The notes: generated by a model not told the origin, from the letters alone. A stretch of 64,000 nucleotides of DNA from Candidatus Fermentibacterota bacterium (GCA_030620115.1 JAUXFG010000001.1:1-64000); one strand, 5' to 3'. Counted from the first letter of the stretch, positions 299 through 63,666 are shown. Translations and numbers: made by a program.

Positions 299-399
299 AG
301 ATTCTTCGGTCGTTCTGCTCCCTCAGAATGACACGCATTCACGCACCCACTTTGGCTCTACCCCTGTCATTCTGAGCGACTGCAAGAAGCGAAGAATCT
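299..399. repeat. 101-bp palindromic element (35-31-35), copy 1
   Basis: The left arm at 299-333 begins AGATTCTTCGGTCG and ends CAGAATGACA. The right arm at 365-399 begins TGTCATTCTGAG and ends GAAGAATCT. The 31-bp spacer at 334-364, read on the minus strand, resembles the spacer of the copy at 11845-11945, so this copy is inverted relative to that one. Confidence 0.85.
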
Positions 400-478
400 C
401 TCCTTGCTCCATCATCTCAACGCGGTACGCTCTCTTCTTCCCAATCCCCTCATTCCCGCAATTCCCCATTCCCCCATT

Positions 479-610
479 GCATCTCTGGAGGGGCGTCCGC
501 CAGCTGGCGGATCGCGTCCGGGGTATCGGATCAAACGGTGGCCATGACGGAGCATAGCCCTCCATTATCCTCCCTTCGAAGGGACGTTGGATGTTCGATG
601 TTGGACGTTA
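479..610. repeat. Composite repeat family C, left copy
   Basis: In order: GCATCTCTGGAGG, a perfect 14-bp palindrome CCGCCAGCTGGCGG (497-510), GGCCATGACGGAGCATAG, and a run of ACGTTGGATGTTCGATGTTG type. The same blocks in the same order occur on the opposite strand at 63711-63836, and the middle block recurs near 47.92 kb. No coding signal. Confidence 0.8.
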
Positions 611-651
611 GTACAATGCGAATCCGATCTTCTCCTCCATGTCTTGCCCGC

Positions 652-1422
652 TCAGGGCTGATGTCTTTGTCTCTCCATGCCTCTCTCGTACTCGGGAAGG
701 AAGGCTCGAGGATCGAGGAAAACGCCGCGGAGCTCCACCTCATAGTGGAGATGTGGGGCGGTGCTTCTTCCCGAATTCCCCAATCGTGCGACGATCTGAC
801 CAGTCTCTACTGCCTCGCCGGGGCGGACCTCTACTTTCTGTAGATGCGCATAGCGGGTCACATGGCCCGCAGAATGCTGCAGCTCCAGTATCCGGCCAAG
901 GGTGTCATCCCAGTAGACGCGGAGGACCTCGGCATCCGCCGGCGCAATCACCGGGCTGCCCAGGCGAGCGGCAAGGTCGATTCCAAGGTGGCTGGGGCGA
1001 TCCTGCCCTGGTTCCGGTCTGAACTCCTGGGTGATCCATCCTGCTACCGGCCAGAGATGCGGAATGGGGTTTTCGGGCTGCAGGTCGACTGCAACTTCGC
1101 CGGCATCGGCCATGGGGACTGCGGGCGTCTCCTCTTCTCTGAGGAACGAAGGGGGCTCAGTTGCTCCGTCACCCGGTGCGCGCCCCGCGGCGCGCAAAAG
1201 GGCGGCAAGTTGTGCCTGTTTCTGGCTCAGGCCCGCAAGCTCCTTCTCTACGAGACGAAGACGAGCTGCTTCCTGACGCGTTGAGAGAAGCTCCAGGGAG
1301 GTCTTGGATAGCGTACGGTTGGTCTCATAGAGCTTGAATGCCGCAAAAGAGGCGATCCCCCAGCCCAGAAGAGCGGCAAGAGCCAGGGATCTATTGATGA
1401 CCAGTGCGTGTCCTCTATCCAT
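652..1422 (-). CDS. M23-family peptidase (LytM/DUF, murein-hydrolase-like), membrane anchored
   Basis: A 256-residue protein with one N-terminal membrane helix (about 9-30), a short coiled coil (about 35-78) and a C-terminal M23 domain (about 125-245). The zinc-site pattern is complete: HLGID gives H145 and D149, YAH gives H193, and APHLHYE gives H224 and H226, so this is probably an active endopeptidase cleaving peptidoglycan cross-links from the periplasmic side, rather than an EnvC-like activator. The ATG at 1422 overlaps the 3' end of the upstream phosphoesterase gene by 8 bases, which suggests translational coupling. A longer in-frame extension lies over that gene and is unlikely. The physiological partner is not evident. 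Confidence 0.88.
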   Translation of the reverse strand: MDRGHALVINRSLALAALLGWGIASFAAFKLYETNRTLSKTSLELLSTRQEAARLRLVEKELAGLSQKQAQLAALLRAAGRAPGDGATEPPSFLREEETPAVPMADAGEVAVDLQPENPIPHLWPVAGWITQEFRPEPGQDRPSHLGIDLAARLGSPVIAPADAEVLRVYWDDTLGRILELQHSAGHVTRYAHLQKVEVRPGEAVETGQIVARLGNSGRSTAPHLHYEVELRGVFLDPRAFLPEYERGMERQRHQP

Positions 1423-2353
1423 GTTGCTTGTCGTATTCTGGAGGCGGCCATGGGCGCGGGGGCTCCTGTACTCCCCATACCCGATGGACTGACACAAGGG
1501 GCTCTCCTTGCGCCAATCGTACCGTGAGAAAATGATAGAAGCCCCCCTTCTCCGGGGCAAGACCTCTGAGGTTCGCACCTCCTCCACCTGTGATAAATTG
1601 CATGATCCCGCCCGGCAAGCGCGACTGATGGAACATATGATCATGGGAACAGAAGACGGCTCGGACCGCGCTGCCCGCCATCAATTCGATCACCGCGTCT
1701 GCATTGAACAATTGTCTCTTCGCGGGCGAGTTAAGGGGATGATGAAGGAAGAGAAATGCAGGCCCACGCTCTTTTGGCCACTGTCGCAATCGATGTCGCA
1801 GCCAATCGAGTTGCGCATCATCCAACCTTCCTTCCTCGCCGGGGAGGCAGCTATTGACGAGCAGTAGGAGCGCGCCGGAGTGCTCCAAGGCGAGGGGGGT
1901 CGCATTGAAACGCTTCTCCAGCAGCTCGAGCATAGTCATGGTCCCCTGATTCTTGGCCTTGTAGAGATCATGGTTGCCCGGTGCGACAAGAAGAGGGGTT
2001 TCCAAGAGCGAAAGCTGGCGATCAACCACGGTCCACTGTTTCTTCACGATGGTAAGATTTTCTGTATAGCCATTGATCAGGTCCCCCAGATGGATCACGA
2101 GTGGTGGGGAGATTCTATTGATCGAATCGATGATGGCAGGCAATACGCTGCGAGATGCCCTGGAGTCGCCAACCACGGCAAAAGCCAATTCGCCATTGCG
2201 ATCCTGTTGGCCTGCTCTGAGTGCCTGTGTTCGATGGTCCTCCCGGCAGCCAGGGAGCAAGAGAATCAGCATGGCTATTGACAGAAGCGGAAGATTTGAT
2301 CGTATTCTCAACGAAAGAACTCCTTTTGGTGATGGTGAAATGAACCCTCTCAT
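1415..2353 (-). CDS. Lipoprotein metallophosphoesterase (calcineurin-like)
   Basis: A 312-residue protein beginning with a type II signal sequence ending in the lipobox LLPGC (C36), so it is probably a lipoprotein. Metallophosphoesterase motifs follow in order: VGDSR (D63), HLGD (about 88-91), PGNHD (about 125-129), a FLHHP histidine pair and a C-terminal SHDH. The substrate cannot be told; purple-acid-phosphatase-like and nucleotide-phosphodiesterase enzymes share this core. The start at 2353 puts the signal peptide at the N-terminus; a longer frame would run antisense into the divergent gene at 2405. Its 3' end overlaps the M23 peptidase start, so the two are probably one transcription unit. 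Confidence 0.85.
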   Translation of the reverse strand: MRGFISPSPKGVLSLRIRSNLPLLSIAMLILLLPGCREDHRTQALRAGQQDRNGELAFAVVGDSRASRSVLPAIIDSINRISPPLVIHLGDLINGYTENLTIVKKQWTVVDRQLSLLETPLLVAPGNHDLYKAKNQGTMTMLELLEKRFNATPLALEHSGALLLLVNSCLPGEEGRLDDAQLDWLRHRLRQWPKERGPAFLFLHHPLNSPAKRQLFNADAVIELMAGSAVRAVFCSHDHMFHQSRLPGGIMQFITGGGGANLRGLAPEKGGFYHFLTVRLAQGEPLVSVHRVWGVQEPPRPWPPPEYDKQHG

Positions 2354-2404
2354 GCTACGTTCAGTTTCCTGTTGCATCAACTGTTGGCATTCTGGAAGAA
2401 GCTT

Positions 2405-3664
2405 ATGATGCCTTTTGCCCAGCTTGCCGTGCTGGCCATACTCTTGCTTGCCTCGGCGTTTTTCTCTGGTTCGGAATCGGCGCTGTTCTCCCTTTCGGGC
2501 TCGACAGTCGCAGGGTTTGCGACGAGCAAGAAGCGCCATGAGCGGGCCGTAGCGCGTCTTCTGGCTGATCGGCAAGCATTGCTTGTGTCTCTTCTGTTAG
2601 GCAATCTACTGGTCAATCTGGCGGCTACGAGCCGTGCAACCTCTCTTTTGATCCATGCATTGGGCGAGAGTTCGGGGTCATGGGTGGCTTGGTTAGGGAT
2701 GACCGTGATGATCCTGGTGGTGGGGGAGATTACCCCGAAGATGATTGCGATACAGAACTCCGGAGCCTGGGCCGTCGGATGTGCCCGCCCCTTAAGTCTA
2801 TTCTCCCGACTGATCCTGCCCATTCGGCTGTTCCTTGTGTGGCTCGTATCTCCTCTCGTGTCCAAATGGGGGATACAACAGGGTTACGATTTCGTGGAGT
2901 TGGCTGAACTTCGCACCGCGGTGGACGAAGGCTGGAAGGCCGGGAAACTACATCAGTTCGAGAGTGACCTTGTGTCTTCGTTGCTTGAGCTGGAAGAGCT
3001 GCGTGTAAAGGAGATCATGACTCCTCGGGTGAAGATCAAGGCATTGGCGGCCGAGGTCCCTCTGGCGGAAATGACCCGGGGCGCGTGGAGAATGCGAAGA
3101 ACACGTGTGCCTGTCTACTCTGGAACGGTGGACAATATCATGGGTGTTCTCCATCTCAAAGACCTCGCAGGCGTTCGAATATCGGCACACAGCTCCACCG
3201 CGGGCGATCTGGCCCGAAAGGCCATGTATGTTCCTTCGGGCATGGCTGTATCACGTCTTCTCCTGCGCTTCAGAGCCGAGAGTGAAGACATCGCCGTGGT
3301 TGTTGATCAGTTCGGCTCAGTTGCCGGGCTGGTCACACTGCAGGACATCGTTGATGAGATTCTCGGACCGCTACCGGACAAGCATGACCCGGCCTCTCCG
3401 GTGCTTACTCCCTATGGTCCCGGAACGTGGTTGATACCTGCGGTATTCCCACTTGATGAGCTGTCGGAACGACTGGGCATTCAGATCGACGATCCGCTAG
3501 TGGAAACCATTGGCGGCCATATCACGCATTGCCTCGGCAGGGTGCCGAAAACAGGAGAAGAGATAATCCTGTCGCAAGGATTGAGGATAAAGGTGCTCCG
3601 GGCTGAACCGAGAAAGCTTGTGGCTCTTTCGGTGACAGTGACGGATCCAATGGGAGTCGACTAG
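2405..3664 (+). CDS. CNNM/CBS/CorC_HlyC-domain membrane protein
   Basis: A 419-residue protein of the HlyC/CorC (UPF0053) family. Residues about 1-150 form the CNNM (DUF21) membrane domain with FFSGSESALF near the N-terminus and the family motif GEITPK. A CBS pair follows from VKEIMTPRV (about 195-330), then a C-terminal CorC_HlyC domain (about 340-419). Members are linked to Mg/Co efflux, and in Bacteroidetes to gliding (GldE); neither role is proven here. The ATG at 2405 is preceded by GGAAGAAG. It ends one base before the next gene, a shorter paralogue, which begins the envelope operon running to 9861. Confidence 0.9.
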   Translation: MMPFAQLAVLAILLLASAFFSGSESALFSLSGSTVAGFATSKKRHERAVARLLADRQALLVSLLLGNLLVNLAATSRATSLLIHALGESSGSWVAWLGMTVMILVVGEITPKMIAIQNSGAWAVGCARPLSLFSRLILPIRLFLVWLVSPLVSKWGIQQGYDFVELAELRTAVDEGWKAGKLHQFESDLVSSLLELEELRVKEIMTPRVKIKALAAEVPLAEMTRGAWRMRRTRVPVYSGTVDNIMGVLHLKDLAGVRISAHSSTAGDLARKAMYVPSGMAVSRLLLRFRAESEDIAVVVDQFGSVAGLVTLQDIVDEILGPLPDKHDPASPVLTPYGPGTWLIPAVFPLDELSERLGIQIDDPLVETIGGHITHCLGRVPKTGEEIILSQGLRIKVLRAEPRKLVALSVTVTDPMGVD

Positions 3665-3665
3665 C

Positions 3666-4616
3666 ATGCTCTGGGTTTTGGTTTTTCTTGGGATCGTGGC
3701 GTCAGCCCTGTTCAGTGGCGCGGAATCGGCGTTTGTGGCGTGTCCGAAGCTCAAAATACGCCATCTGGCCAGGCAAGGGGTATCTGTTGCACAACGTCTG
3801 GAAAAGGCCATGGCGGATCCCGGGCCGTATCTCTCCACACTATTGGTGGGCACGAACCTTGCAAATGTGGGCGGTACCGTGGCTGCCGCCAGATTGGCTG
3901 AAGGGCTTTTTCCCGGGAAAGGCGATGCGGTGGCTACCGCGGTGATGGTACCCCTTTTTCTCGTGCTCAGCGAGATACTACCGAAGAGCTACTTCCTGGC
4001 TCACGCCAGAAGCCTGTGTCTCAGGATTTTTGTCCCACTCGCCGTACTCCGGCGTGGGCTTCAGCCATTGATTGTGTTGGTGGGGGCCCCGGCGAGGCTG
4101 TTGGGCATGACGGAGTCCGAGGCGAATCTCCCCATCACCAGGGAGGAATTGGTTCTCCTTGCGCGGCTTGGGAGAAAACAGACGCGGCTCAGCGGAGCGG
4201 TGAGCCACCTCTTGGAAAAGCGAGTGGCGGCGGCACGCCCGATAGCCAGCGAAATCATGATCCCGGCCCACAAGGTGGCGGTACTCCCATATGACATCAC
4301 CGTTGAGGCGGCGTTGCCCATGATCGAAGCTTCGGGATTCACTCGCTACCCATTGGATCGGGGGGGCAACTGGCATGGACTCGTACACGTGGTGGACATC
4401 GTGGGGAGCCTTGCCGCAACGCCGCTGGAGCTGCTTGCTCATCCGATACCGGCAGTGGCAGGAGACGCGCAGTTGGAGGATATTATCGAGACCATGAGAA
4501 CCGCTGGTGAGCATGTAGTGATCGTGCGGGAGTCGATGAGGAATGTCGGACTACTCACTCTGGACGACGTGGTAAGGCATTTCACCTCGGGACTAGACCC
4601 TGAGGTGGCGCAGTGA
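3666..4616 (+). CDS. CNNM/CBS-domain membrane protein lacking a CorC_HlyC tail
   Basis: A 316-residue paralogue of the preceding protein. The N-terminal LFSGAESAF and LSEILPK mark the CNNM domain, with four likely membrane segments in the first 150 residues. A CBS region begins around ASEIMIPAHKVAVLP. The C-terminal CorC_HlyC domain seen in the neighbour is absent. Such tandem long/short pairs may form heteromers; that is inference. The ATG lies directly behind the previous stop, and its own stop overlaps the GTG of the TamA-like gene in a GTGA arrangement, which suggests coupled translation. Confidence 0.88.
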   Translation: MLWVLVFLGIVASALFSGAESAFVACPKLKIRHLARQGVSVAQRLEKAMADPGPYLSTLLVGTNLANVGGTVAAARLAEGLFPGKGDAVATAVMVPLFLVLSEILPKSYFLAHARSLCLRIFVPLAVLRRGLQPLIVLVGAPARLLGMTESEANLPITREELVLLARLGRKQTRLSGAVSHLLEKRVAAARPIASEIMIPAHKVAVLPYDITVEAALPMIEASGFTRYPLDRGGNWHGLVHVVDIVGSLAATPLELLAHPIPAVAGDAQLEDIIETMRTAGEHVVIVRESMRNVGLLTLDDVVRHFTSGLDPEVAQ

Positions 4617-6397
4617 GGCTTGCTTGGCTGCCGCTGCTGGTTCTGGTGGGTTGCGCAAGACTGGGCGCACCAGGGTATCAAGAGATACCCAAGGAGCAGC
4701 TCGTCAAGGAGGTTGTGATTGAGGACCAGGGCGCCTTTCCACACAAAGAGACCGAAGCTGTTCTTTACGTAACGCGGGGGCGGTTTTTCGACAGTTATGA
4801 GTGGGACAAGGACAAAGATAGACTAAAAGCGTACTATCACTTGCGTGGGTTCCCTGATGCACGGATAGAGCTGTCCGAGGCGTTGCAAGGGCCAGATGGT
4901 GTGCGGATCAGATATGTGATCAACTCCGGCCCCGAACTCCGCTTGATGGATCTTTCACTGGCCTCCGGTGGTATCCTGATGGCGAGTGAGCTCAAGGAAC
5001 TCCTCTCCCTTGATACCGGCGATCGCTTGGATCGGCAGGCCCTGGATCTGGGCAAGGCACGCATACGGTCTGCGTTGGCCTCTTTGGGTTATGTGCGTGC
5101 GAAGGTCGATGCAAGAGTGATCGCCAAGAAACATAAGGCCTCCCTGGATATAGCGATAGAAGAAGGGAAGCGGGCCTATATCGGTGATGTTGAGCTCTTA
5201 GGCCTCGAGCATGTGCGTCTTTCGGTTGCATCCAGAGAAGTGGTGCTGAAACGGGGAGAGCTGTTTCTCCCCAAGTCCGTGTATGCTACCCAGAAGCATC
5301 TGCTCACCACCGGGCTCTTTTCAAGCGTGAGGGTCTTGGTCCCCGGGCTAGAGCGTGGAGACGATACCCTCCGGGTATTTATACAGATGAGGGAAGCAAA
5401 ACACAGATTCATCGAGTCAGGGCTTGGCTACGCGTCCTCCGATGTCTCGCCCGACAGGGTGACCACGTCTCTCTCAATGGGGCACGAGAATCTTTGGGGA
5501 CTCGCGGCATCGCTTCTTCTTGAGCTTGGTCTCCAGCGGGAATGGTCGTCGGATTTCTGGCAGCAGACTGCTCGATTGGCCTATACGGAACCCTGGCTCA
5601 GAGGGATGCCGTTCACCGGCGGCATTTCCTTGGACTACAAGAGGCGTTCAGTGGGGAGCTCCGAGTACCAGAGCTATGGCGCAACCATTTTGGCCGGCCG
5701 GTCCTGGCATGAGCGGGCCAGTGTGTTCGCGCGGTACAAGTACCAATCAAGGCTTACGGATGCGGGTGAGGACCCAAGCGACTACCTCGTTGATGAGATC
5801 AATCGCCCCATAACCAATAGCGTGGAAGGAACAATAACCCTCGATACGAGGGATTCTTTTGCCGACCCGCACTCGGGGCAGCTTTTCCGCACGCAACTGA
5901 TGCACGCCGGTACGTTTCTCAAAGGAGATTGGTCCTTTCGGAAGCTTTTCGTGGACTGGAGCGCGTATCGCCAAGTGGGAGCTTTCGTGTTCGCTACTCG
6001 TGCTCGTGTGGGTCTGATTCGGCCATTGTCTGATTCGCCCACTGCTCCGGAGGAAGAACGATTTCGCGCCGGCGGGTCGAATAGCGTGCGCGGTTTCAAG
6101 GAGGAGGGGCTCGGACCTATTGATGAAGATGGCAACGCCCTAGGGGGAGAGGAACTGGTGGTGGCCAACCTCGAGCTGAGGGCGCCGATCTGGCGCCACG
6201 TGGGCCTCGGCCTTTTTCTTGATATGGGTCAAGTGTGGCAGACGGCTGGGGCGGGGCGCCTATCGGATCTGGAACCCGCCGCCGGGCTCGGGTTGAGATA
6301 TGCCACGGTCATTGGGCCGGTGCGAGCGGACTGGGGCGTGCCATTGAAGCATGACGGCCGGGGCACGGTGTGCCTGACATTGGGACACGCATTCTGA
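4613..6397 (+). CDS. Omp85-family outer-membrane barrel protein, TamA/BamA-like
   Basis: A 594-residue protein. POTRA-type repeats occupy about residues 35-265 and the C-terminal half (about 300-594) is an Omp85 beta barrel, including the RFRAGGSNSVRGF segment typical of the surface-antigen domain and a terminal aromatic residue (GHAF). Because the next gene encodes a TamB-like protein, a TamA role in inserting outer-membrane proteins or in lipid transport is more likely than BamA. The N-terminus reads MRLAWLPLLVLVGCARLG, a signal sequence with a plausible lipobox cysteine at position 14, which is odd for an Omp85 protein. The GTG start overlaps the previous stop, and the 3' end overlaps the tamB-like ATG. 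Confidence 0.9.
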   Translation: MRLAWLPLLVLVGCARLGAPGYQEIPKEQLVKEVVIEDQGAFPHKETEAVLYVTRGRFFDSYEWDKDKDRLKAYYHLRGFPDARIELSEALQGPDGVRIRYVINSGPELRLMDLSLASGGILMASELKELLSLDTGDRLDRQALDLGKARIRSALASLGYVRAKVDARVIAKKHKASLDIAIEEGKRAYIGDVELLGLEHVRLSVASREVVLKRGELFLPKSVYATQKHLLTTGLFSSVRVLVPGLERGDDTLRVFIQMREAKHRFIESGLGYASSDVSPDRVTTSLSMGHENLWGLAASLLLELGLQREWSSDFWQQTARLAYTEPWLRGMPFTGGISLDYKRRSVGSSEYQSYGATILAGRSWHERASVFARYKYQSRLTDAGEDPSDYLVDEINRPITNSVEGTITLDTRDSFADPHSGQLFRTQLMHAGTFLKGDWSFRKLFVDWSAYRQVGAFVFATRARVGLIRPLSDSPTAPEEERFRAGGSNSVRGFKEEGLGPIDEDGNALGGEELVVANLELRAPIWRHVGLGLFLDMGQVWQTAGAGRLSDLEPAAGLGLRYATVIGPVRADWGVPLKHDGRGTVCLTLGHAF

Positions 6398-9861: not shown

Positions 9862-9865
9862 TAAA

Positions 9866-9920: not shown

Positions 9921-10175
9921 GATACCGGTTGCTGGTCACTGGATACTGGATGATGGGACCGGATCGTTCCGTTTTCCTTCCAGCATCAAGCATCCAGAAA
10001 CCAGCATCGCCTCGCAGCCAACCCACATATGTCGTCGCAAAACTTGACTCGTTTGTGAAGTTTCCAACCTATTGAAGACGGCTAGTAAATCCATAGACTT
10101 ACTAGAGATTTAGCCTACATTCCGCACTTCGTGAGGGCGATTCTGGCGAATATTGGGCCGCTCTCGACACCCGAA
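9921..10175. other. Gap with low-complexity CCAGCATC-type repeats
   Basis: No gene signal. It contains short iterations such as ACTGGATACTGGATGATGG and CCAGCATCAAGCATCCAG, then the flank of the transposase remnant. Promoter sequences were not recognised. Confidence 0.5.
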
Positions 10176-11647: not shown

Positions 11648-11844
11648 GATCCCCTCCTTCTTTCCCGCGACAGTAGACGGCTCCCCGGCTGTCTATTGGG
11701 AGCCATTCATGATTTCCACTAGTGAAGCGACGGAGATGGTCGCGAGGTTCACCGGGGGTTGATGTGTGCAGACCAAAGATGGGGGATGGGGAAGAAGAGG
11801 CCTTCAGCGTTGAGCGTTCAGCGTTGAGATGATGGAGCAAGGAG

Positions 11845-11945
11845 AGATTCTTCGTTCCCTGTGGTCGCTCAGAATGACAGTGGTAGTGCCAATGTGGATG
11901 TGTGAATGCCTGTCATTCTGAGGGAGCGGAGCGACCGAAGAATCT
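11845..11945. repeat. 101-bp palindromic element (35-31-35), copy 2
   Basis: The left arm at 11845-11879 starts AGATTCTTCG and ends CAGAATGACA. The 31-bp spacer is 11880-11910. The right arm at 11911-11945 starts TGTCATTCTGAGGGAG and ends CGAAGAATCT. Total length and arm spacing match the copies at 299, 33791 and 63566. Confidence 0.88.
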
Positions 11946-11990
11946 GGGAGGGGGAATGATGGACGGAAAGGATTGGCCCGGACTCCTCAA

Positions 11991-13715: not shown

Positions 13716-14101
13716 TATCTCCTCCTTGAGGGATCGACCCACGTTTATCACCCAATAGGAAAGGCATTGGGTTATGACCTGGGTCAGGTGGTGGAAAGCG
13801 GCACTGAAGCGACTCACGGCTATCTATGACTCGTTGATTCCTGGTCAAGAGTCGTGTGTCGGTCGGAGTGGAGCTTTGCCACCCGCTTGTGGCGGGCTGG
13901 CCCAACTGGAGTATTGGAATGCTGGATTGCGGGAATGGGGAGAGGAGAGCGTTCAGCGTTCAGCGTTCAGATGGCAGAATGAGAAGAGGGAGAGGGTTTT
14001 TCGCTTCTTGCAGTCGCTCAGAATGACACATGTCATCTACAAGAACCGGGCAACTCTGCTATTGACACATCTCCTGGAAGCCATATTCTGTTGCGCGTTC
14101 T
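13716..14101. other. Gap between divergent transporter and tRNA-Pro
   Basis: No gene. It holds the 5' leader of the transporter, three tandem copies of GCGTTCA (13949-13969) and a solitary 35-bp arm of the palindromic family (13994-14028). The promoters of both flanking units must lie here but were not recognised with confidence. Confidence 0.6.
13994..14028. repeat. Solitary 35-bp arm of the palindromic element
   Basis: It ends TCGCTCAGAATGACA and contains TTCGCTTCTTGCAG. It is nearly the reverse complement of the right arm of copy 1 (365-399). No partner arm follows at the 31-bp distance. Confidence 0.75.
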
Positions 14102-33790: not shown

Positions 33791-33891
33791 AGATTCTTCG
33801 CTCCTGTCGGTCGCTCAGAATGACAGGGGTGTGGTACGAACAGATGTGGCACTGTGTGTCATTCTGAGGAAGCGGAGCGACCGAAGAATCT
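33791..33891. repeat. 101-bp palindromic element (35-31-35), copy 3
   Basis: Left arm 33791-33825, spacer 33826-33856, right arm 33857-33891. The right arm (TGTCATTCTGAGGAAGCGG to CGAAGAATCT) is the exact reverse complement of the solitary arm at 56490-56524. Confidence 0.88.
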
Positions 33892-35340: not shown

Positions 35341-35431
35341 GGCGGGGCTGAAGCTGATACTGTGTGAGAAGGGCCTCGATCGGAGCGATTGCGGCGAAGG
35401 GCAGAATTTGCGTATGTTGCCCGCTCAGCGT

Positions 35432-35578
35432 TAGCCCGGACTTCTCACCGGCTTTCGTCGCGAAACCGTCGAGATGGTTCTGGCTGCGAGGCTTGCGACT
35501 GAGGACCCCGCAGGCGTATCCACTGTCCCGCGTCGGACGCGGGACTGCAGCCGAAAGCTGGTGAGAAGTTCGGGTTAG
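35432..35578. repeat. Family-B repeat
   Basis: AGCCCGGACTTCTCACCGG, GGCTTGCGACTGAGGACCCC, GCAGGCGTATCCACTGTCCC and the CCCGCGTCGGACGCGGG palindrome, ending GGTGAGAAGTTCGGGTTAGG. It ends only a few bases before the SGNH gene's ribosome-binding site. Confidence 0.75.
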
Positions 35579-36713: not shown

Positions 36714-37053
36714 CCGAACTTCTCACCAGTTTTTGGCTGCAGTCCCGCGTCCGACGCGGGACAGTGGATACGCCTGCGGGGTCCTCAGTCGCAAGCCGAG
36801 CCCGGACCTCTCACCAGCTTCCTACCCCGCTGGAAGCGGGGCCGATATGGCTCTGTCTGCTGCGTTACGCTCCGTCAGCTTCCTCGATCCCGCGTCGGCC
36901 GCGGGACAGAGGATACGCCTGCGGGAGCCTCGGTCGCAAGCCTTGCAGCCACAACCATTTCTTCTGTCTCGCCACGGAAGCCGGCGAGAAGTCCGAGCTA
37001 ACATTCAGAACCATTTCGGCCGTTTCGCTTCGAAAGCCGGTGAGAAGTCCGGC
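36714..37053. repeat. Family-B repeat cluster, tandem and rearranged
   Basis: A gap with no gene and at least three partial B units: GACTTCTCACC-like starts near 36718 and 36806, the CCCGCGTCGG/CCGCGGGACA palindromes, GCGGGGTCCTCAGTCGCAAG and GCGGGAGCCTCGGTCGCAAG, and GAAAGCCGGTGAGAAGTCCG at the end. The two flanking genes converge on it. Confidence 0.75.
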
Positions 37054-38877
37054 TTATCGAAGCTCCGGGCGAAGCAAGAGCACCTGAATGTCGTGCTGGG
37101 CATCCTGGTACCCCACCTCAAGCTCTTCCCCTCTCATCATATCAAGACCTTTGCACACCCCCGGTTCACACCGTCTGAAGAGCTCATCAACATAGATGGC
37201 CTTGACATCTCTTGTCAGAAGCCACCCGAGCAGGTCGCGGCGCGATGTGAGTTTGCGGGGTTCGGGAAATATGGGGATATAATCCAAGCGTGCCATGATC
37301 ACGGGAGCCGGAGAGTAGGAAGCCACATTCGAACCTGCAGGGAGATGGCTGGCCAAGAAGAGAGCCGCCTGCTCGTTGGGAGCTGTGCCCAGCTCCGGGA
37401 TGGAAGGGATGGAGCAGCGAGCTGGGCGGCAGAATAGGCTTTGGAGGGTAAGCAGGAATACTATGCCATAGGAGCCAATCGAGGTTCTGACTGAGTGTCT
37501 CAACGTGCCCCCATACCGATCCGATAGAATCCATATGATCGACAAGCCAAGCAGGAAGACCACGGCCGGGGCGAGCAGGCGCTTATTGACAGTGCCGAGT
37601 GCATAGATGATCAGTCCGAGCATTACGGCGCATGCTATTACCCGCTCTCGTCTCTGGTTTATTGTGGCGAATAGCGCGGCCGAACCAATGGCAGCAAGCA
37701 CAAATACGATGGCGCAAGGCAGAAGGAAGTACCCCTCCCTGAAGAAGGTCACCAGGTAGGCCAGGAGATGCAAGGGCCACGCGAGCATGATGAGGAGAAC
37801 GGACCATGCCCGTCTTCTGGCGAGTGCGACGATTCCGCGGACTGCGAGCAGGAGGAGCAGCGCGCCTGTTCCGTGGAGCCCCTTGCCATAGGCCACGAAA
37901 GCTTGAGCCGGCATCTGGAGGATTACATGAGTGATACGTTGAAGAAACGCCCTTGGATTCCTCCGGATGGCCTTGAGTACGGAATAGTTGTTATCCTCAG
38001 GCGTACCATAGAGATCCCGCGCCAAGGCATATCCCTCTACATAGGGATTCTCCGCCTCGCAGAGAGGACCATAAGCGACCCCTTGGCCTTGCTCAAACGC
38101 GTCGTAGAGTCTACGCTTGGTACCAACCTCGAACTCTCCCGAAAGCAACCCGACGAGCGCGATATATCCCCCAACTATCACGGCGAATGGCGCCACGCAT
38201 GCGGCGACTGATCCGAGCGTTTTCCCCCGTGCGCCATGCAGGAGAATCACAAGTATCAGTGCGGTGATGAAGAGAAGCAGCCCGTCATTCCGACAAAGTG
38301 CCGCCATGGAGATGAATACCGCGCAGATAACGAGGTGTTTCCTCAAGCCGGTGGCGGAGAACCTCAGAAACTGCCAGAGCGCAAAGGCGGAGAGAGCCGC
38401 GAAGAGCGCATCGCTGGAGTTATCCAGGATGCTCAAGAGACTGGGCGTTACCAAAAGAAGGAGCAAAGGCATGAGGGGCGATACGATGTGCTTGAGTTCG
38501 CGGCTGATGACGTAGGTGCCAAACCAAAGGAAGATGAAGATGATGATGCGGCCAAGCGCATAGGCATGCATGAGCCAGAATGGCGATTCTTGAAAAGGGA
38601 TGATCGCCAGCGCCCAGAACGCGGCGACAAGCGGGTTGGATGCGTAGGTGGGGAATTCCCCGTGGAGCAGCAGCCGGCCATTGTTGAGATAGTAGGCTTC
38701 ATCGAACGACCAGATGTCGGTCAGAGTGGGAAAGAAAGCGCGGAAGGTGAGAGCAAAACCTAAGGCGATGAGCAGAGCGACGCATATGGGTGGGCAGTCC
38801 CCGGGGATGAAAACATTCGATTTCCCCGGCGTTTGGCTATCGGGGATCCTACTTGATGTTCGCGTCTTGTTAGGCAA
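37054..38877 (-). CDS. Membrane glycosyltransferase, GT39/ArnT-like
   Basis: About 607 residues from TTG 38877, three bases after the upstream stop; a longer frame to 38985 overlaps the SGNH gene. Roughly 11-12 membrane helices, with the first periplasmic loop carrying TLTDIWSFDEAYYLNNGRLL, the acidic loop typical of GT-C lipid-linked-sugar transferases. A soluble C-terminal domain follows (about 520-607). It likely moves a sugar from a polyprenyl carrier onto a lipid, polysaccharide or protein in the periplasm; the acceptor is unknown. It probably forms one minus-strand unit with the two SGNH genes. Confidence 0.82.
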   Translation of the reverse strand: MPNKTRTSSRIPDSQTPGKSNVFIPGDCPPICVALLIALGFALTFRAFFPTLTDIWSFDEAYYLNNGRLLLHGEFPTYASNPLVAAFWALAIIPFQESPFWLMHAYALGRIIIFIFLWFGTYVISRELKHIVSPLMPLLLLLVTPSLLSILDNSSDALFAALSAFALWQFLRFSATGLRKHLVICAVFISMAALCRNDGLLLFITALILVILLHGARGKTLGSVAACVAPFAVIVGGYIALVGLLSGEFEVGTKRRLYDAFEQGQGVAYGPLCEAENPYVEGYALARDLYGTPEDNNYSVLKAIRRNPRAFLQRITHVILQMPAQAFVAYGKGLHGTGALLLLLAVRGIVALARRRAWSVLLIMLAWPLHLLAYLVTFFREGYFLLPCAIVFVLAAIGSAALFATINQRRERVIACAVMLGLIIYALGTVNKRLLAPAVVFLLGLSIIWILSDRYGGTLRHSVRTSIGSYGIVFLLTLQSLFCRPARCSIPSIPELGTAPNEQAALFLASHLPAGSNVASYSPAPVIMARLDYIPIFPEPRKLTSRRDLLGWLLTRDVKAIYVDELFRRCEPGVCKGLDMMRGEELEVGYQDAQHDIQVLLLRPELR

Positions 38878-55831: not shown

Positions 55832-55887
55832 TCCTCCGTCCGGATCGAATCGCGTCGTTGTTGTGACGCGAGGCGGGGAGAGCTGCC

Positions 55888-56489: not shown

Positions 56490-56524
56490 AGATTCTTCGG
56501 TCGCTCCGCTTCCTCAGAATGACA
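56490..56524. repeat. Solitary 35-bp arm of the palindromic element
   Basis: AGATTCTTCGGTCGCTCCGC followed by TTCCTCAGAATGACA; the reverse complement of the right arm of copy 3 without mismatches. No partner arm is present at the expected distance. Confidence 0.85.
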
Positions 56525-56756: not shown

Positions 56757-56856
56757 ATGGTGGGGCTACGGTTCCGGGATCTCTCTATGGGATTTTATAT
56801 TCCTATCGTGAGCCGTAGCGTCAGGCCGAGACCGTAAAACGAGAAAATGAAACATC

Positions 56857-58698: not shown

Positions 58699-59118
58699 AT
58701 GCCAAAACGTTGCGCTGTTTGGATCGATCATTCAAATGCCTTTATTGTGAAGTTCGCCAACGGTGGCGAACCTGAAGTGGAGAAGTTGGAATCAGGTATC
58801 GGAGCCATACACAAGAGTACCGGTGGGGCAAGAGCAAAGGAACCATATCGTCACGGTTCGGCGAGGAGACATTCCGAAGAGGAGCGGAGGAACCATCAGC
58901 TCACGAAGTTCTACGGCCAGATAGTATCACGGATCAAGGATGCCCCGAAGGTTCTGCTGCTTGGCCCAGGTTTGGCAAAGCAGGAGCTTGGGAAAGCCAT
59001 CCAGGACTTACCTGGCGCTCACAAACCAGGTTACGAAATCCATCCAGCCGAGAAGATGTCCGATCGTCAGCTAGTGGCCCTGGTCCGGAAAGAGCTGAAT
59101 GTACCGGCGCCTCTCTAG
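58699..59118 (+). CDS. baeRF-like (eRF1-related) small protein
   Basis: A 139-residue protein starting PKRCAVWIDHSNAFIVKF, with a His-rich basic middle (RHGSARRHSEEERRNHQL), FYGQIVSRI and LLLGPGLAKQELGKAIQ. This is the layout of short bacterial eRF1-domain proteins, often annotated translational machinery protein; they may act on stalled or hibernating ribosomes, which is unproven. A GGAGG site eight bases before ATG 58699 decides the start over the ATG at 58663. Confidence 0.68.
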   Translation: MPKRCAVWIDHSNAFIVKFANGGEPEVEKLESGIGAIHKSTGGARAKEPYRHGSARRHSEEERRNHQLTKFYGQIVSRIKDAPKVLLLGPGLAKQELGKAIQDLPGAHKPGYEIHPAEKMSDRQLVALVRKELNVPAPL

Positions 59119-59155
59119 CTGCCTGCGGCAGGCAGGGGGAATTGGGTGATGGAAG

Positions 59156-59201
59156 AATGGGGTGATGGGGTGATGGGGTGATGGGGTGATGGGGTATGGG
59201 G
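59156..59201. repeat. Tandem 8-bp microsatellite (GGTGATGG)
   Basis: About five consecutive copies of the 8-mer with a degenerate end (GGTATGGGG), between the baeRF-like and flippase genes. A palindrome TGCCTGCGGCAGGCA lies just upstream at about 59120-59134. Confidence 0.8.
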
Positions 59202-59328
59202 AGGGGATTCTCGGAGAGAGGGAATATCAGTATTCCTATTCCTGCGCGAACCCTAAGCTCCATATCCGTGCACGGGTGACCGTTTCGATCACTTAAAAGA
59301 GGAAAGAATCTCCAAGGGACCGTCTGCG

Positions 59329-60585
59329 ATGAGGTGGGCGGCCCTTGAAGCACGACAGCTTTTCTCCACTGGATTCTTCCATGTCGTGGGAGCCCAGGGT
59401 GTGGTGCGAGCTGTCACGATTGTACAGGGGTTGGTGCTTGCGCGTATGCTGGGGCGCGAGGATCTTGGGCGATACGCGGTATTCGCGTCCGTGTTGGCCC
59501 TGGGGGCGATTGTTGCCCAGGCGGGAGTTCCCAGTGCGCTTTCCCGTTTCATCGCCCTTGCTGAGGACAGGAAGCGCCAGAAGGAAATCCGTGACTCGGC
59601 GGCGACCGTGGCAATCCTGTGGTCTCTGGTGGTGGGTGCTTCTCTCGCGCTGCCGCCGTTAGGACGCGTGCTCTCCAATGAGTCCTGGGTATGGGGCGTC
59701 CTTCCTCTTGCACTGATCATTCTTCCGCTGCAGACAGCTTCGCAGTCGAGCCTGGCGTTGTTGCACGGCCGTGCGATGCTCCAGAGGAAATCCGGTCTCG
59801 AGAGCCTGGCTGCTCTGATCTCCATTATGGCCATCATCGGGGGAGCTATGGGCATGGGCGTCTCTGGCGCGGCGTGGGGGCGGGTCGTCGCGGCGGGGTG
59901 TATTGCGGTGATGATAGGCCGGGTCACCGGGCAAAGGCCCTCTGCAAAGAAGGTATGCCCCGATGGATTCTGGCGATTCGCGCTTTTGAGCCTGGCCAGC
60001 TCGTCGTTCTCCACCATGATCCATACGGCGGATACGCTGGTGCTGGCAATATTCCGGATCGGCAGTGGCATCATCGGAGATTACCGTGTCGCCGCCATGG
60101 CATACCTTGGTCTCTCCATGGTTCCCGCTGCCGCCATGCATACGATGTTTCCTCGACTGGTGAGAATACACAGGGATGGCGGCGATCTCGCAGCTCTCTG
60201 TCGGCGATTGGGGATTCGACTCCTGGCTTATGGGCTGACCGTGGGGATCATGGGAGTGGTGTTTTTACCCAGGCTGCTTGTATGCATTCTTGGGGCACAG
60301 TACCATGGGTCCAAGCCCTTTCTTCTGATTCTCTCAATGGGGCTGCCCTTTCGGGCGCTGGTGTTGGGCGCAGGCAGCGTCATCCTTGCTTTGGGAAGAC
60401 CGGGTCTCAACTTCTCACTTCTTCTACTTTCGGGAACTCTCAACATTGCCCTCAATGTGTTGCTCATTTCCTCAATCGGCGCAGTTGGCGCGGCGTGGGC
60501 AACATTGGCCACCGAGGCAACCAGCGCCATTGCCGGATCCGTGGCGGTTCTGGTTATTTTGAGGAGGTCTCTCCGTGCGGGCTAG
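59329..60585 (+). CDS. Polysaccharide flippase (MOP superfamily, Wzx-like)
   Basis: A 418-residue membrane protein with about 12 helices. The N-terminal VLARMLGREDLGRYAVFASV matches the Polysacc_synt family, and a late GAVGAAWATLATEATSAIAG is also typical. It would flip lipid-linked oligosaccharide across the inner membrane. Nearby GT4 and GNAT/FemAB-like genes fit a glycan-assembly group, although a family-B repeat separates them. Confidence 0.87.
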   Translation: MRWAALEARQLFSTGFFHVVGAQGVVRAVTIVQGLVLARMLGREDLGRYAVFASVLALGAIVAQAGVPSALSRFIALAEDRKRQKEIRDSAATVAILWSLVVGASLALPPLGRVLSNESWVWGVLPLALIILPLQTASQSSLALLHGRAMLQRKSGLESLAALISIMAIIGGAMGMGVSGAAWGRVVAAGCIAVMIGRVTGQRPSAKKVCPDGFWRFALLSLASSSFSTMIHTADTLVLAIFRIGSGIIGDYRVAAMAYLGLSMVPAAAMHTMFPRLVRIHRDGGDLAALCRRLGIRLLAYGLTVGIMGVVFLPRLLVCILGAQYHGSKPFLLILSMGLPFRALVLGAGSVILALGRPGLNFSLLLLSGTLNIALNVLLISSIGAVGAAWATLATEATSAIAGSVAVLVILRRSLRAG

Positions 60586-60785
60586 CCTGCGCTTCTTACC
60601 GGCTTTCGTCGCGAAGCGGTGTAGTTAGCTGTGCCTGCAAGGCTTGCGACCGAGGACCCCGCAGGCGTATCCCCTGTCCCGCGTCTGACGCGGGATCGAG
60701 GAGTCCGAAGGAGCGTAACGCAGCAGGCAGAGCCAAATGCAACGCTGTAGTCCCGCGGCGGACGCGGGATGAGAAATGCGGGCTA
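60586..60785. repeat. Family-B repeat
   Basis: GCTTCTTACCGGCTTTCGTC, AAGGCTTGCGACCGAGGACC, CCGCAGGCGTATCCCCTGTC, CCCGCGTCTGACGCGGG and CCCGCGGCGGACGCGGGATG, then GAGAAATGCGGGCTAA. The last ATG in it (60776) is the first possible start codon of the next gene. Confidence 0.78.
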
Positions 60786-61744
60786 AGCCCATGGTATTCT
60801 ACGGAGAGGACGCATTGGCGCTGGAACTCTGGCATGATCTTGCCGCTGGAGACCGGCGATGCAGGCTGTCTCAGACACCGCAGTGGGCACGGTGGTCTGC
60901 GGATGAGCTGGGGTGGAAGATAGGGTGCATGATGTGGGAATTGGAAGAAGTCGTCTTCCCGTTTGTGGTGGTCAATCGGCACTCGTGTATTGATGTTCTT
61001 GTGGAATCGCTTCCATGGGGTCAGATCGGGGGGCCCCTGGTGGGTGGGAGCGAGCATCGGGAAGTGACCTCATTGGTGGCAAAAGAGATCGAAGGACTTG
61101 CGCAGGAACTCCTAGTATACGCCGACTCCGTGCGATTCTCCCCGGCCACGTGGCAATCATGCACCTACAGCATTCATGAGGCTTCTCTGACGGACGACCG
61201 GGAACGCCAGTGGGCACTTGCAGAGCCGCGTTGCAGAACCGCTGCCCGACATGCGGAGCGAGAAGGCGTCCGAATTGTGAAAGCCACGGGAGGCGCCTTG
61301 CTGGCCGAGTCAGTGGCTCTCCACCTGAGACAGCAAGGCGTGAGAGATGCCAGGGTACTGCCTGGTAGCTGGTGGGAGCGTCTTTTGCGGGAAGGTGCAC
61401 ATCATGTGGGGCTCTGGTGTGCAGTTATGGACAGCCGCGTTATTGCCGCATTGCTCGTCGGGTGGTGGCAAGATCGAGCAGTAGCATTGATTTCCACCAG
61501 TGACCCAAGGGCACGGCCTCTGAAGGCGGGGAACCTTCTCTATCTCACCGTGTTGGAAGAGCTTGGAGTTCGGGGCCTCAGAACCCTTGATCTCGGCGGG
61601 AGTCGAGGCAAGCCCGGGCTCGAATCATTCAAGGAGTCAGTGGGTGCGTATCGCACCAGCAGACCCTTCTATCGATACAGGAATCCGACCTACAAGCTTT
61701 ACCAGAGCGTTGCCCGGAAAGCGAAGATGATCGTCGGGCATTGA
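60776..61744 (+). CDS. GNAT-fold FemAB-like acyl/aminoacyl-transferase
   Basis: Up to 322 residues; ATG 60791 is an alternative outside the repeat. FemAB/BioF2-like (GNAT_acetyltr_6) features: LSQTPQWARWSADELGWKIG near the N-terminus and GNLLYLTVLEELGVRGLRTLDLGGSR followed by LESFKESVGAYRT, the usual C-terminal core. Relatives add amino acids or acyl groups to peptidoglycan or exopolysaccharide precursors. The donor is unknown. Confidence 0.8.
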   Translation: MRAKPMVFYGEDALALELWHDLAAGDRRCRLSQTPQWARWSADELGWKIGCMMWELEEVVFPFVVVNRHSCIDVLVESLPWGQIGGPLVGGSEHREVTSLVAKEIEGLAQELLVYADSVRFSPATWQSCTYSIHEASLTDDRERQWALAEPRCRTAARHAEREGVRIVKATGGALLAESVALHLRQQGVRDARVLPGSWWERLLREGAHHVGLWCAVMDSRVIAALLVGWWQDRAVALISTSDPRARPLKAGNLLYLTVLEELGVRGLRTLDLGGSRGKPGLESFKESVGAYRTSRPFYRYRNPTYKLYQSVARKAKMIVGH

Positions 61745-61837
61745 CAAGGAGGTTGTTTTCTCGCAGGTTGGATGAATGAATTTGCGAGGTTTGGCCCGAA
61801 CTAGTCTAACACCAAATGCAAGTGAGGAGCGCAGACG

Positions 61838-62266
61838 ATGAGAACAAGGCTCTTGATCATAGCAGGAATGATAGTGTTCGCTCACACGGCAGGTTTGGCC
61901 TTTACCGGGGTCAGCGCGCCCTCGCTCTCGATGGGTGAGCGGCACACTGGAGTGAGCTTGCTGGATCTATCGAGAGTGAGCATCAAGAACAGTCTCATGT
62001 TCGGCTACTCCTCTGGTGTGGGAAGGAAGGAGTCGGCTGGCGCGCTCTTCACTACCCTCGGGTATAGATTTTCGCCACGATTGATGGTTCGGGCGACCCT
62101 AAGCAAAGAGTTCTCGATCTATGGCCGGGACTCGTCGGATCAGAACATTTCCCTCTCCGGGCTCAAGGTCGACTGGAAGCCCATAGACAGCATGCATTTC
62201 CATCTGGAGTTCGCCAGAGTCCCCTCTCTCTGGCAGGAGCGAACCCTGTTTCCCCGCAATTGGTGA
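61838..62266 (+). CDS. Small exported protein of unknown function
   Basis: A 142-residue protein with a signal peptide (about 1-22, cleavage near GLAF) and alternating polar/hydrophobic stretches such as GALFTTLGYRFSPRLMVRATL, suggestive of beta strands and perhaps a small barrel or a fragment of one. It ends with LFPRNW. No family recognised. A GAGGAG site seven bases before the ATG supports it. Confidence 0.65.
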   Translation: MRTRLLIIAGMIVFAHTAGLAFTGVSAPSLSMGERHTGVSLLDLSRVSIKNSLMFGYSSGVGRKESAGALFTTLGYRFSPRLMVRATLSKEFSIYGRDSSDQNISLSGLKVDWKPIDSMHFHLEFARVPSLWQERTLFPRNW

Positions 62267-62310
62267 GCGGGGGGGTTTTGATCCCTCTCCCGAGCTAGAT
62301 CTAGCTGCCC

Positions 62311-63489
62311 ATGTACCGCATATTGGGCATCGCTCCTACGCCGTTTTTTTCTGATCGCGGCTGTCACGTCCGTATACTTGAAGAGGCCCGGGCGCTTACC
62401 CGGCTTGGGCATGAAGTCACCATTTGCACCTACCATCTTGGCCGAGATCCCGAAGGTATCACGCTCCATCGCATCCCCCATATCCCCTGGTATTCCAAAC
62501 ATGATGCAGGCCCATCCTGGCACAAGTACTACATTGATATGCTTCTAACGGTGCGGGCTCTATTGAGTGGCCTTCGCGATAAGCCTGATATCGTCCATGG
62601 CCATCTTCATGAGGGGGTCTTCATCGGCTACTTCGTAAGCCGGATTCTGGATGTGCCCCTGGTATTCGACCTCCAGGGAAGCCTCACGGGGGAGATGCTT
62701 GCACACGATTTTATCTCCACCAGAGGCCTGTTCTACAGCTCCAATCGTTTCCTCGAAAAGTTGACCACGCAGATGGCTGATGTGATTCTTGCGTCCTCGG
62801 TGGGTGCAGCATCTTATCTCCAGGACGATCCCGATCTGAACGGGAAGAAGGTTCATATCGTGCCCGAAGGGATCGATGTCCGGCCGTATGATGCCATCAA
62901 AGAGACCGAAACGCTTCGTGCTTCCTTAGGGATTTCGAGGGACGATCCGCTCTGTGTCTACATGGGAGTGCTCTATCCATATCAGGGAATCGATGCGTTG
63001 ATCCGATCGGCGCCCATTGCCCTTGAATTGTGCCCTGCTCTTCAATTTCTTGTCATCGGGTTTCCCCATGTTGAGCACTATCGGCAGATGGCCGAGAGGC
63101 TCGGTTTGGGAGAACGGTTTCATTTTGTTGGCAAGGTTCACTACGAGAACGTGCCCGAGTACTTGAAGGCGGGCGATCTTGCGGTTACGCCGAAGGATTC
63201 CCAGACCGAAGCAAACTCAAAGATATACAACTTCATGGCTGCAGCGCTCCCAGTGGTTGCCTACGACACCGCCACCAACCGGTCACTGCTGGGCGAGCTG
63301 GGCGTATATGTGACGCGAGGTGACGAGTCGGGGCTCGCCAAGGCGGTGGGCTCGTTGGCCGCGGACCATACGCGAAGGAAAGACCTGGGAGAGGCGGTTC
63401 GGCGCAAGGCACAGGAGGAGTTCAGCTGGATGGAGGTGGGAAGAAAGATCGTGACCGTCTACGAAGATCTGCTTCGTGGAAGAGGATAG
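62311..63489 (+). CDS. GT4-family glycosyltransferase (paralogue 2)
   Basis: A 392-residue GT-B enzyme paralogous to that at 48270. APTPFFSDRGCHVRILEEARAL and GHLHEGVFIGYFVSR are in the N-domain; VYMGVLYPYQGIDALIR, EYLKAGDLAVTPKDS and NFMAAALPVVAYDTATNRS lie in the C-domain. The EAR-EAL-type nucleotide-sugar loop is replaced by SQTEANSKIYNF. Both enzymes share HLHEG/HNYEG-type loops, so substrates may be related. ATG 62311 has no strong ribosome-binding site. Confidence 0.88.
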   Translation: MYRILGIAPTPFFSDRGCHVRILEEARALTRLGHEVTICTYHLGRDPEGITLHRIPHIPWYSKHDAGPSWHKYYIDMLLTVRALLSGLRDKPDIVHGHLHEGVFIGYFVSRILDVPLVFDLQGSLTGEMLAHDFISTRGLFYSSNRFLEKLTTQMADVILASSVGAASYLQDDPDLNGKKVHIVPEGIDVRPYDAIKETETLRASLGISRDDPLCVYMGVLYPYQGIDALIRSAPIALELCPALQFLVIGFPHVEHYRQMAERLGLGERFHFVGKVHYENVPEYLKAGDLAVTPKDSQTEANSKIYNFMAAALPVVAYDTATNRSLLGELGVYVTRGDESGLAKAVGSLAADHTRRKDLGEAVRRKAQEEFSWMEVGRKIVTVYEDLLRGRG

Positions 63490-63565
63490 GGAGGAATGGG
63501 GAATATAGAATCTGCAATGTAGAATCTGAAATCTGACAATCTGGAATTTGGGGAAAGTGTGGGAG

Positions 63566-63666
63566 AGATTCTTCACTCCTTGTGGTCGCTCAGAATGACA
63601 GGGGTGGTGCGCAGAAGGATGCAGTACGTTGTGTCATTCTGAGGGAGCGGAGCGACCGAAGAATCT
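63566..63666. repeat. 101-bp palindromic element (35-31-35), copy 4
   Basis: Left arm 63566-63600, spacer 63601-63631, right arm 63632-63666. The right arm equals that of copy 2 over its TGTCATTCTGAGGGAGCGGA and CGAAGAATCT parts; the spacer is close to that of copy 3 (both start GGGGTG). Confidence 0.88.

What the first reader, a model, noticed from the sequence alone, without database searches (positions are those of the whole stretch)
299..63666. A 101-bp intergenic element with fixed 35-31-35 palindromic geometry, four full copies
Copies at 299-399, 11845-11945, 33791-33891 and 63566-63666 all have exactly 35-bp arms and a 31-bp spacer. The outer AGATTCTTCG/CGAAGAATCT and inner CAGAATGACA/TGTCATTCTG ends are near-invariant, and the spacers are related but variable. 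Exact length control in the absence of coding suggests a structured mobile unit (REP/MITE-like), a protein-binding site or an expressed hairpin RNA. Similar strings are, from memory, widespread in uncultivated-bacterium assemblies, yet no function is known to me.
Basis: seen in the sequence. Interest (0 to 1): 0.85.

Follow-up and report, generated by a model that had tools for sequence, protein, structure and literature searches.

The report
Paired DNA hairpins with nuclease partner
The repeated 101-letter element is a pair of short DNA hairpins of a known bacterial repeat class (CGTC/TGTC-tagged REPs) that was reported to lack an enzyme; across many phyla, this genome included, these hairpins sit beside the gene of a small GIY-YIG nuclease, which is therefore their likely partner.

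Summary
All four copies exist exactly as described. The source genome holds 367 exact arms, but the lengths are modal rather than fixed: the spacer is 31 nt in 37 of 71 pairs and ranges from 11 to 61. Each copy is a head-to-head pair of two different hairpin REPs, A plus B in 70 of 70 pairs. On one strand each arm reads TGTC-ATTCT-GA-[stem-loop]-GA-AGAAT-CT. Across phyla the inner stem changes sequence while staying complementary (329 of 549 pairs against 202±11 when reshuffled). This matches the CGTC/TGTC-tagged REP superfamily (Di Nocera 2013), which was said to lack a dedicated transposase. RAYT linkage failed. An unbiased neighbour search instead found a standalone GIY-YIG nuclease within tens of bases of the arms, in this genome and in many other phyla. 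In Clostridia sampled without regard to arms, 11 of 12 such genes had arms nearby, against 0 of 17 UPF0213-type relatives. One clade is REP-flanked in 37 of 43 cases, against 1 of 36 outside it, and includes Neisseria, Sinorhizobium and Azospirillum genes flanked by classical CGTC REPs. Best reading: non-autonomous hairpin repeats recognised, and probably spread, by a single-strand-acting GIY-YIG nuclease (Ssn-like, from memory). Nuclease activity and mobility are untested.

The parts
299..399 (+). full element: arm A 299-333, spacer 334-364, arm B (reverse) 365-399
11845..11945 (-). full element: arm B 11845-11879, spacer 11880-11910, arm A (reverse) 11911-11945
33791..33891 (-). full element: arm B 33791-33825, spacer 33826-33856, arm A (reverse) 33857-33891
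63566..63666 (-). full element: arm B (one mismatch) 63566-63600, spacer 63601-63631, arm A (reverse) 63632-63666
56490..56524 (+). single intact A arm without a recognisable partner
13994..14028 (+). single decayed B arm (3 mismatches in the 20 fixed positions)
285..432 (+). copy 1 with its conserved pyrimidine-rich flanks, homologous over about 142 nt to 11812-11953
   Evidence: inverted repeats I2 and I5; flank conservation

Best explanation
The element is a head-to-head heterodimer of two TGTC-tagged REP hairpins. Read on the GA strand, each arm is TGTC | ATTCT | GA | inner stem-loop | GA | AGAAT | CT: a 5-bp stem, a symmetric GA/GA step, a variable but complementary inner stem (in short arms usually GC-GNA-GC), and an unpaired TGTC tag. 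The cognate protein is a standalone GIY-YIG nuclease of about 95 aa, encoded elsewhere in this genome (contig C254, two copies) and itself flanked by A and B arms. Shown here: structure, covariation, gene-repeat adjacency and gene-repeat co-variation. Inferred: the nuclease binds the folded single-stranded hairpin with its TGTC tag when the strand is exposed (replication, DNA uptake) and cuts beside it. Repair of these cuts, or re-use of the released strand, copies the pair and now and then the gene into new intergenic sites. Each strand of the dimer shows one recognisable arm, so nicks can be placed on both strands around the spacer, and the A/B difference avoids one long perfect palindrome. 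Membership of the TGTC/CGTC REP class: about 0.95. The GIY-YIG protein as its partner: about 0.9. Spread by its nuclease activity: about 0.5.
For: Heterodimer: 70 of 70 head-to-head pairs are A+B. Constraint: mean pairwise distance is 0.003 for the inner decamers (tag side), 0.032 outer and 0.385 for the spacer. Hairpin: 115 distinct inner sequences from 107 loci in other genomes give 329 of 549 Watson-Crick pairs against 202±11 with 3' halves re-dealt (max 242 of 2000) and 104-139 when slid; GNA is the commonest central triloop, closed by GC/GC, AC/GT, GT/AC or AT/AT. The DNA minimum-energy fold of arm A is this structure. Enzyme: an unbiased all-against-all of ORFs near arms pointed to GIY-YIG genes in four genomes of different lineages. 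In this genome the gene lies 7-8 bp from arms on both sides (L315) and the second copy 11 bp from an arm. Adjacency held in 11 arm-bearing genomes from the handle set plus one Clostridiaceae. Arm-blind test: 11 of 12 against 0 of 17, Fisher 3.5e-7. Clade of 43 (support 99/96): 37 flanked, against 1 of 36 outside, Fisher 5.8e-15. Arm ends vary with the protein: Mantel r 0.636, 0 of 5000 permutations. Sister genomes without arms have only UvrC-length GIY-YIG proteins. In Azospirillum lipoferum a REP-gene-REP unit lies between sufB and sufC, absent in three relatives 95-96% identical there.
Against: Eleven of 25 arm-bearing genomes yielded no member of the nuclease clade, among them Lachnospiraceae NC2004 with 139 arms. 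MAG gaps or loss could explain this, but so could another mobiliser. GIY-YIG nucleases hydrolyse DNA and are not known to rejoin strands, so a copying step must come from the host. No target-site duplication was found, and exact insertion boundaries in Azospirillum are blurred by flank divergence. Predicted DNA folding energies of the own-genome arms are no better than shuffles; the case rests on covariation. Adjacency alone would also fit a nuclease that only uses the repeats as its own regulatory or landing sites.
Confidence: 0.8

Rival explanations
1. Ordinary REPIN/BIME mobilised by a RAYT (HUH Y1 transposase).
For: Same anatomy: tagged imperfect hairpins in inverted pairs of about 100 bp, hundreds of copies. 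E. coli REPs also need a tag and an irregular stem (PMC8266576). A 311-aa RAYT-like gene in one Bacteroidales genome has a pair of arms 174 bp downstream.
Against: The genome's Y1 genes are not near arms. Its true RAYT (NF047646, 194.8 bits) is flanked by a different, GTAG-tagged REP. Helicobacter marmotae has 348 arms and no PF01797 hit. The tag is TGTC, not GTAG.
Confidence: 0.07
2. The nuclease and the hairpins form a genome-maintenance or DNA-uptake control system: the enzyme cuts incoming or exposed single strands at the repeats, and the repeats are kept by selection rather than by self-spread.
For: From memory, the Neisseria homologue family (Ssn) cuts single-stranded DNA at repeats and modulates transformation. 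The near-zero divergence of tag-side decamers against 0.385 in spacers fits strong site constraint.
Against: Absent from the sister genus, patchy across phyla, with copy number from 3 to 367, and an intact unit inserted in an operon. That is the pattern of a selfish element. Both readings can be true together.
Confidence: 0.3
3. MITE of a double-strand (DDE) transposase, with the 35-bp arms as terminal inverted repeats.
For: Inverted ends, uniform size near 101 bp, dispersed copies.
Against: No target-site duplication. Each arm is a hairpin with its own covarying inner stem. Arms occur singly and as free-length dimers. No DDE transposase gene emerged near the arms.
Confidence: 0.03
4. Expressed hairpin RNA, terminator or mRNA-stabilising element.
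For: 70% of arms lie outside ORFs that cover 86.5% of the sequence; convergent gaps are mildly favoured (25 of 89, against 56 of 268 gaps). REPs can act at RNA level (PMC3733652).
Against: Both orientations are built into every dimer. No Rfam match. Linkage to a DNA nuclease and co-variation with it point to DNA. Side effects in transcripts are not excluded.
Confidence: 0.05

Closest known systems
CGTC-tagged REP superfamily (Di Nocera, De Gregorio, Rocco 2013, PMC3733652)
   Same: CGTC or TGTC tag, stem beginning with AT, short unpaired tail, head-to-head dimers, heterodimers, spacers of 20-100 bp, mainly intergenic, no RAYT association.
   Different: Published families have continuous 8-9 bp stems, 4-5 nt loops and mostly CCA tails. 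Here the stem is 5 bp plus GA/GA steps plus a variable inner stem, often with a GNA triloop, the tail is CT, and the range includes many phyla not listed there. That paper found no dedicated enzyme; a GIY-YIG nuclease is found here.
Ssn family of site-specific single-stranded GIY-YIG nucleases of Neisseria and others (from memory, Nature Communications 2025; not held in the library)
   Same: The N. gonorrhoeae homologue falls in the same clade and is flanked by CGTC REPs whose sequence fits the dRS3 repeats.
   Different: Cleavage was not tested here. The repeat is another type, and the link to the whole CGTC/TGTC REP superfamily, with its heterodimers, is drawn here from genomes.
REPINs/BIMEs with RAYT (GTAG REPs; PMC3116915, PMC8266576)
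   Same: Paired imperfect hairpins of about 100 bp, conserved ends and variable spacer, high copy number, tag plus irregular stem.
   Different: Tag TGTC instead of GTAG; partner gene GIY-YIG instead of HUH Y1; the same genome has a separate GTAG/RAYT pair.
UPF0213 GIY-YIG proteins (PDB 1zg2, 1ywl)
   Same: Nearest solved sequences to the nuclease.
   Different: UPF0213-type genes fall outside the REP-flanked clade and have no arms nearby.

Membership tests
CGTC/TGTC-tagged REP superfamily | unpaired CGTC (or TGTC/CCTC) tag at one end of a hairpin | tested here: met
   of 137 aligned own arms the four tag positions differ from TGTC in only 4 letters in all
CGTC/TGTC-tagged REP superfamily | stem starting with complementary AT residues | tested here: met
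   AT...AT invariant in own arms and present in the flanking arms
CGTC/TGTC-tagged REP superfamily | continuous stem of 8-9 bp with 4-5 nt loop | tested here: not met
   5 bp, GA/GA, then a variable inner stem; hence filed as a variant, not as one of the four published families
CGTC/TGTC-tagged REP superfamily | predominant head-to-head dimers | tested here: met
   71 HH, 13 TT, 4 HT pairs
CGTC/TGTC-tagged REP superfamily | short unpaired tail, mostly CCA | tested here: inconclusive
   tail CT, third base C in 84 of 174 arms elsewhere
REPIN/BIME mobilised by RAYT | GTAG tag | tested here: not met
   tag is TGTC
REPIN/BIME mobilised by RAYT | repeat flanks a RAYT gene | tested here: not met
   own Y1 genes without arms; about one of 30 elsewhere
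Ssn-type GIY-YIG nuclease system | standalone GIY-YIG protein with conserved catalytic residues | tested here: met
   PF01541 over cut-off; invariant Y11, Y21, G23, R31, H35, E68 in alignment A1
Ssn-type GIY-YIG nuclease system | cognate repeat in many copies and around the gene | tested here: met
Ssn-type GIY-YIG nuclease system | sequence-specific cleavage of single-stranded DNA | not testable with these tools
   needs purified protein
MITE of a DDE transposase | target-site duplication | tested here: not met
   no excess of direct repeats of 2-10 bp at 70 dimers

The most novel reading that the evidence does not exclude
The whole CGTC/TGTC REP superfamily and one clade of GIY-YIG nucleases form a single mobile system, present in at least ten phyla, in which a single-strand-acting hydrolytic nuclease, not an HUH or DDE transposase, drives the spread of hairpin pairs and of its own gene. 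This would be a second, independently evolved counterpart of the RAYT/REP system.
Probability: 0.45. Interest if true: 0.88.

Novelty: new variant of a known kind. Interest (0 to 1): 0.7.

Why it matters
CGTC/TGTC REPs are among the most widespread bacterial repeats, and their reference paper left open which enzyme, if any, moves them. The genome evidence here names one: a small GIY-YIG nuclease clade whose members change together with their hairpins. It also gives a precise, testable recognition model (tag, short stem, GA/GA step, variable stem) and supplies natural enzyme-site pairs with different specificities. If the enzymes cut single-stranded DNA as recalled for the Neisseria homologue, each cognate pair is also a possible site-specific single-strand cutter.

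Tried and rejected
RAYT linkage: PF01797 in the own genome and 24 arm-bearing genomes, flanks of 1.5-3 kb, plus the L165 protein in 149 relatives of its host genome; only isolated adjacencies. Expressed RNA: Rfam, no match. Target-site duplications and inverted flank matches: none. Literature search by repeat sequence: nothing relevant. Folding energy as evidence: z-scores near zero for own arms, so not used. Kinship: only three genomes of this phylum are held, so no close-strain comparison. Exact boundaries from Sinorhizobium: site too rearranged. The Ssn paper could not be read. No structure prediction was run because the Pfam match and conserved residues already settle the fold.

Full report
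Observation. The genome (G000, 4.10 Mb, 296 contigs) has 367 exact arms against none for the reversed pattern, and 252 half-anchored dimer matches counted on both strands. In 0.92 Mb that I examined in detail, arms have 0 or 1 mismatches in their 20 fixed positions in 170 of 203 cases; the reversed-sequence control has 6 hits, one with 2 mismatches and five with 4. Spacer length is modal, not fixed: 31 nt in 37 of 71 head-to-head pairs, with a range of 11-61.

Anatomy. There are two arm sequences. A is AGATTCTTCG-GTCGCTCCGCTCCCT-CAGAATGACA and B is AGATTCTTCG-CTCCTTGGAGTCGCT-CAGAATGACA. Every one of 70 head-to-head pairs is A+B. In 37 elements of exactly 101 bp, mean pairwise distance is 0.003 for the inner decamers, 0.032 for the outer decamers, 0.154 and 0.214 for the arm centres, and 0.385 for the spacer. 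Conservation continues into pyrimidine-rich flanks (CCCACCC before A, CTCCTTC after B), so the repeated unit is longer than 101 bp.

Each arm is itself a hairpin. Read on the other strand: TGTC-ATTCT-GA-inner-GA-AGAAT-CT. In the own genome the inner part is GG-GA-GCGNAGC-GA-CC in A and GC-GA-C-NNCAA-G-GA-GC in B. Pair 13-25 is G-C in A and C-G in B, and pair 16-22 likewise, while the GA steps stay. In other genomes the inner part ranges from GCGNAGC (N is any base) to about 31 nt. Among 115 distinct inner sequences the first two free positions are A (113) and G (112), the second being the partner of a fixed C. Watson-Crick pairing is 329 of 549, against 202±11 when 3' halves are re-dealt within length classes (max 242 in 2000) and 104-139 when slid. 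GNA triloops dominate, closed by GC/GC, AC/GT, GT/AC, CC/GG or AT/AT. d(GCGNAGC) is known as an unusually stable DNA mini-hairpin, and tandem G.A pairs are stable in this context (own knowledge). Predicted energies with standard parameters do not distinguish own arms from shuffles, so I rest on covariation.

Distribution. The two other genomes held for this phylum, in another genus, have no arms. A scan of 84,980 species stopped at its limit, with matches in Planctomycetota, Chloroflexota, Campylobacterota, Clostridia, Bacteroidales, several deltaproteobacterial lineages, Nitrospina, Ignavibacteria, Zixibacteria, Latescibacterota, Acidobacteria and others. Copy number among 24 genomes followed up runs from 3 to 348.

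Looking for the enzyme. The RAYT expectation failed. Four Y1 genes in this genome have no arms nearby. The true RAYT (L011, NF047646, 194.8 bits) is surrounded by its own REP, GTAGGTCGGGTTAGCGCAGCGTAACCCGAC, a GTAG type. Across 24 arm-bearing genomes only one RAYT-like gene, in a Bacteroidales genome, had arms within about 200 bp. I then compared all ORFs within 600 bp of arms in other genomes without a candidate in mind. Among the largest clusters was a small GIY-YIG protein 0-15 bp from arms in four genomes of different lineages. Searching PF01541 in 27 genomes, standalone genes turned out flanked by arms in this genome (L315, 7-8 bp on both sides; L316, 11 bp) and in ten other genomes of the set, plus a Clostridiaceae. 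The two sister genomes without arms have only UvrC-length hits. The contig with the gene carries the genome's own B-type arms, so it belongs there.

Independent test. In 291 genomes of the class of G015 (Clostridia), chosen without regard to arms, 12 further genes close to the query and 17 more distant, UPF0213-like ones came with flanks. Eleven of 12 against 0 of 17 have tagged arms within 200 bp, mostly within 20 bp (Fisher 3.5e-7). The arms differ from gene to gene (stems ATTCT, ATCCT, ATTCC, ATTGC, ATTTC) but keep TGTC/CGTC, AT and usually GA/GA. In a tree of 79 proteins one clade of 43 (support 99/96) holds 37 of the 38 REP-flanked genes; outside it 1 of 36 is flanked (Fisher 5.8e-15). 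Distances between arm ends and between proteins correlate (Mantel r 0.636, 0 of 5000 permutations). Control loci (UvrC, UPF0213, RAYT) hold 6 tagged hairpins in 171 kb. Support values in a 93-column tree are rough, and the same clade supplied the search seeds.

Link to the known superfamily. tblastn against plasmid records, which include some mis-filed chromosomes, finds clade members in Neisseria gonorrhoeae (46.7%), Sinorhizobium meliloti, Rhizobium, Azospirillum lipoferum, Aeromonas caviae, Photobacterium, Spirosoma and Planktothrix (67%). In eight of the twelve loci fetched, CGTC or TGTC hairpins flank the gene, among them the Neisseria CGTCATTCCCGCGCAGGCGGGAATC repeats, which fit the dRS3 repeats (CGTC-1 of PMC3733652), and S. 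meliloti CGTCATCCTCGGGCTTGACCCGAGGATCCA. [quoted passage not shown] In A. lipoferum the REP-gene-REP unit lies between sufB and sufC, and three relatives 95-96% identical over the matching stretches have only the short intergenic gap.

Mechanism. Shown: tagged hairpin, heterodimer, partner gene, co-variation, presence/absence as a unit in one operon. Inferred: recognition of the folded GA strand, cleavage next to the tag side (the most conserved part), spread through repair. From memory and not checked, a family named Ssn (GIY-YIG, Neisseria) cuts single-stranded DNA at repeats and affects transformation; the paper is not in the library. A hydrolytic nuclease does not by itself insert DNA, which is the weakest step. 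Eleven of 25 arm-bearing genomes show no clade member, so repeats can outlive the gene or be served by something else.

Verdict. The element is a new structural variant of a known repeat class. The real gain is a strongly supported partner enzyme for that class. If the Ssn work already states this link in general form, what remains new is this variant, the A/B rule, the covarying GA hairpin and the multi-phylum coupling.

Noticed in passing
L011 and L057 (own contig C200, about 12.4-17.8 kb): A canonical RAYT gene (NF047646) with many nearby GTAG-tagged REPs (GTAGGTCGGGTTAGCGCAGCGTAACCCGAC): a separate RAYT/REP system in the same genome.
   Followed up: partly
L010 (own contig C118), 1354-1384 and 2438-2468: A 324-aa Y1 transposase gene flanked by 31-nt inverted repeats (TTTCTGGGGTCAGATCTTTAATGTT...), also found elsewhere in the genome; resembles RAYTs with long terminal repeats.
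   Followed up: no
window 25-119, 35430-35544, 36743-37059, 60558-60772: Other repeat families: CAGTCCCGCGTCCGACGCGGGACAG palindromes and AAAGCCGGTGAGAAGTCCGG segments in several orientations; the latter also lies about 130 bp from a Y1 gene (L009), so it may be a further REP type.
   Followed up: no
window 10082-10115; L012 1250-1288: A 38-nt near-perfect palindrome (CTCTAGTAAATCCATGGATTTACTAGAG), repeated in the genome and next to a short Y1 gene.
   Followed up: no
L301 (Helicobacter marmotae, G003): A GIY-YIG domain in a long open frame sits inside an array of 13 arms; this genome has 348 arms in 2.0 Mb and no Y1 transposase hit.
   Followed up: partly
L364 (Planktothrix agardhii plasmid): The REP-flanked GIY-YIG gene lies between a type IIL restriction enzyme and DISARM drmA, i.e. 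inside a defence cluster.
   Followed up: no
L366 (S. meliloti pSymB), 1159-1319: A truncated second copy of the GIY-YIG gene's 3' end lies beside the intact one, each between CGTC REPs, suggesting local duplication of the unit.
   Followed up: partly
own genome, many contig ends (C1, C8, C9, C11, C30, C39, C91, C99, C107, C108): Elements sit near contig ends, so the assembly probably breaks at them and the copy number is a lower bound.
   Followed up: no
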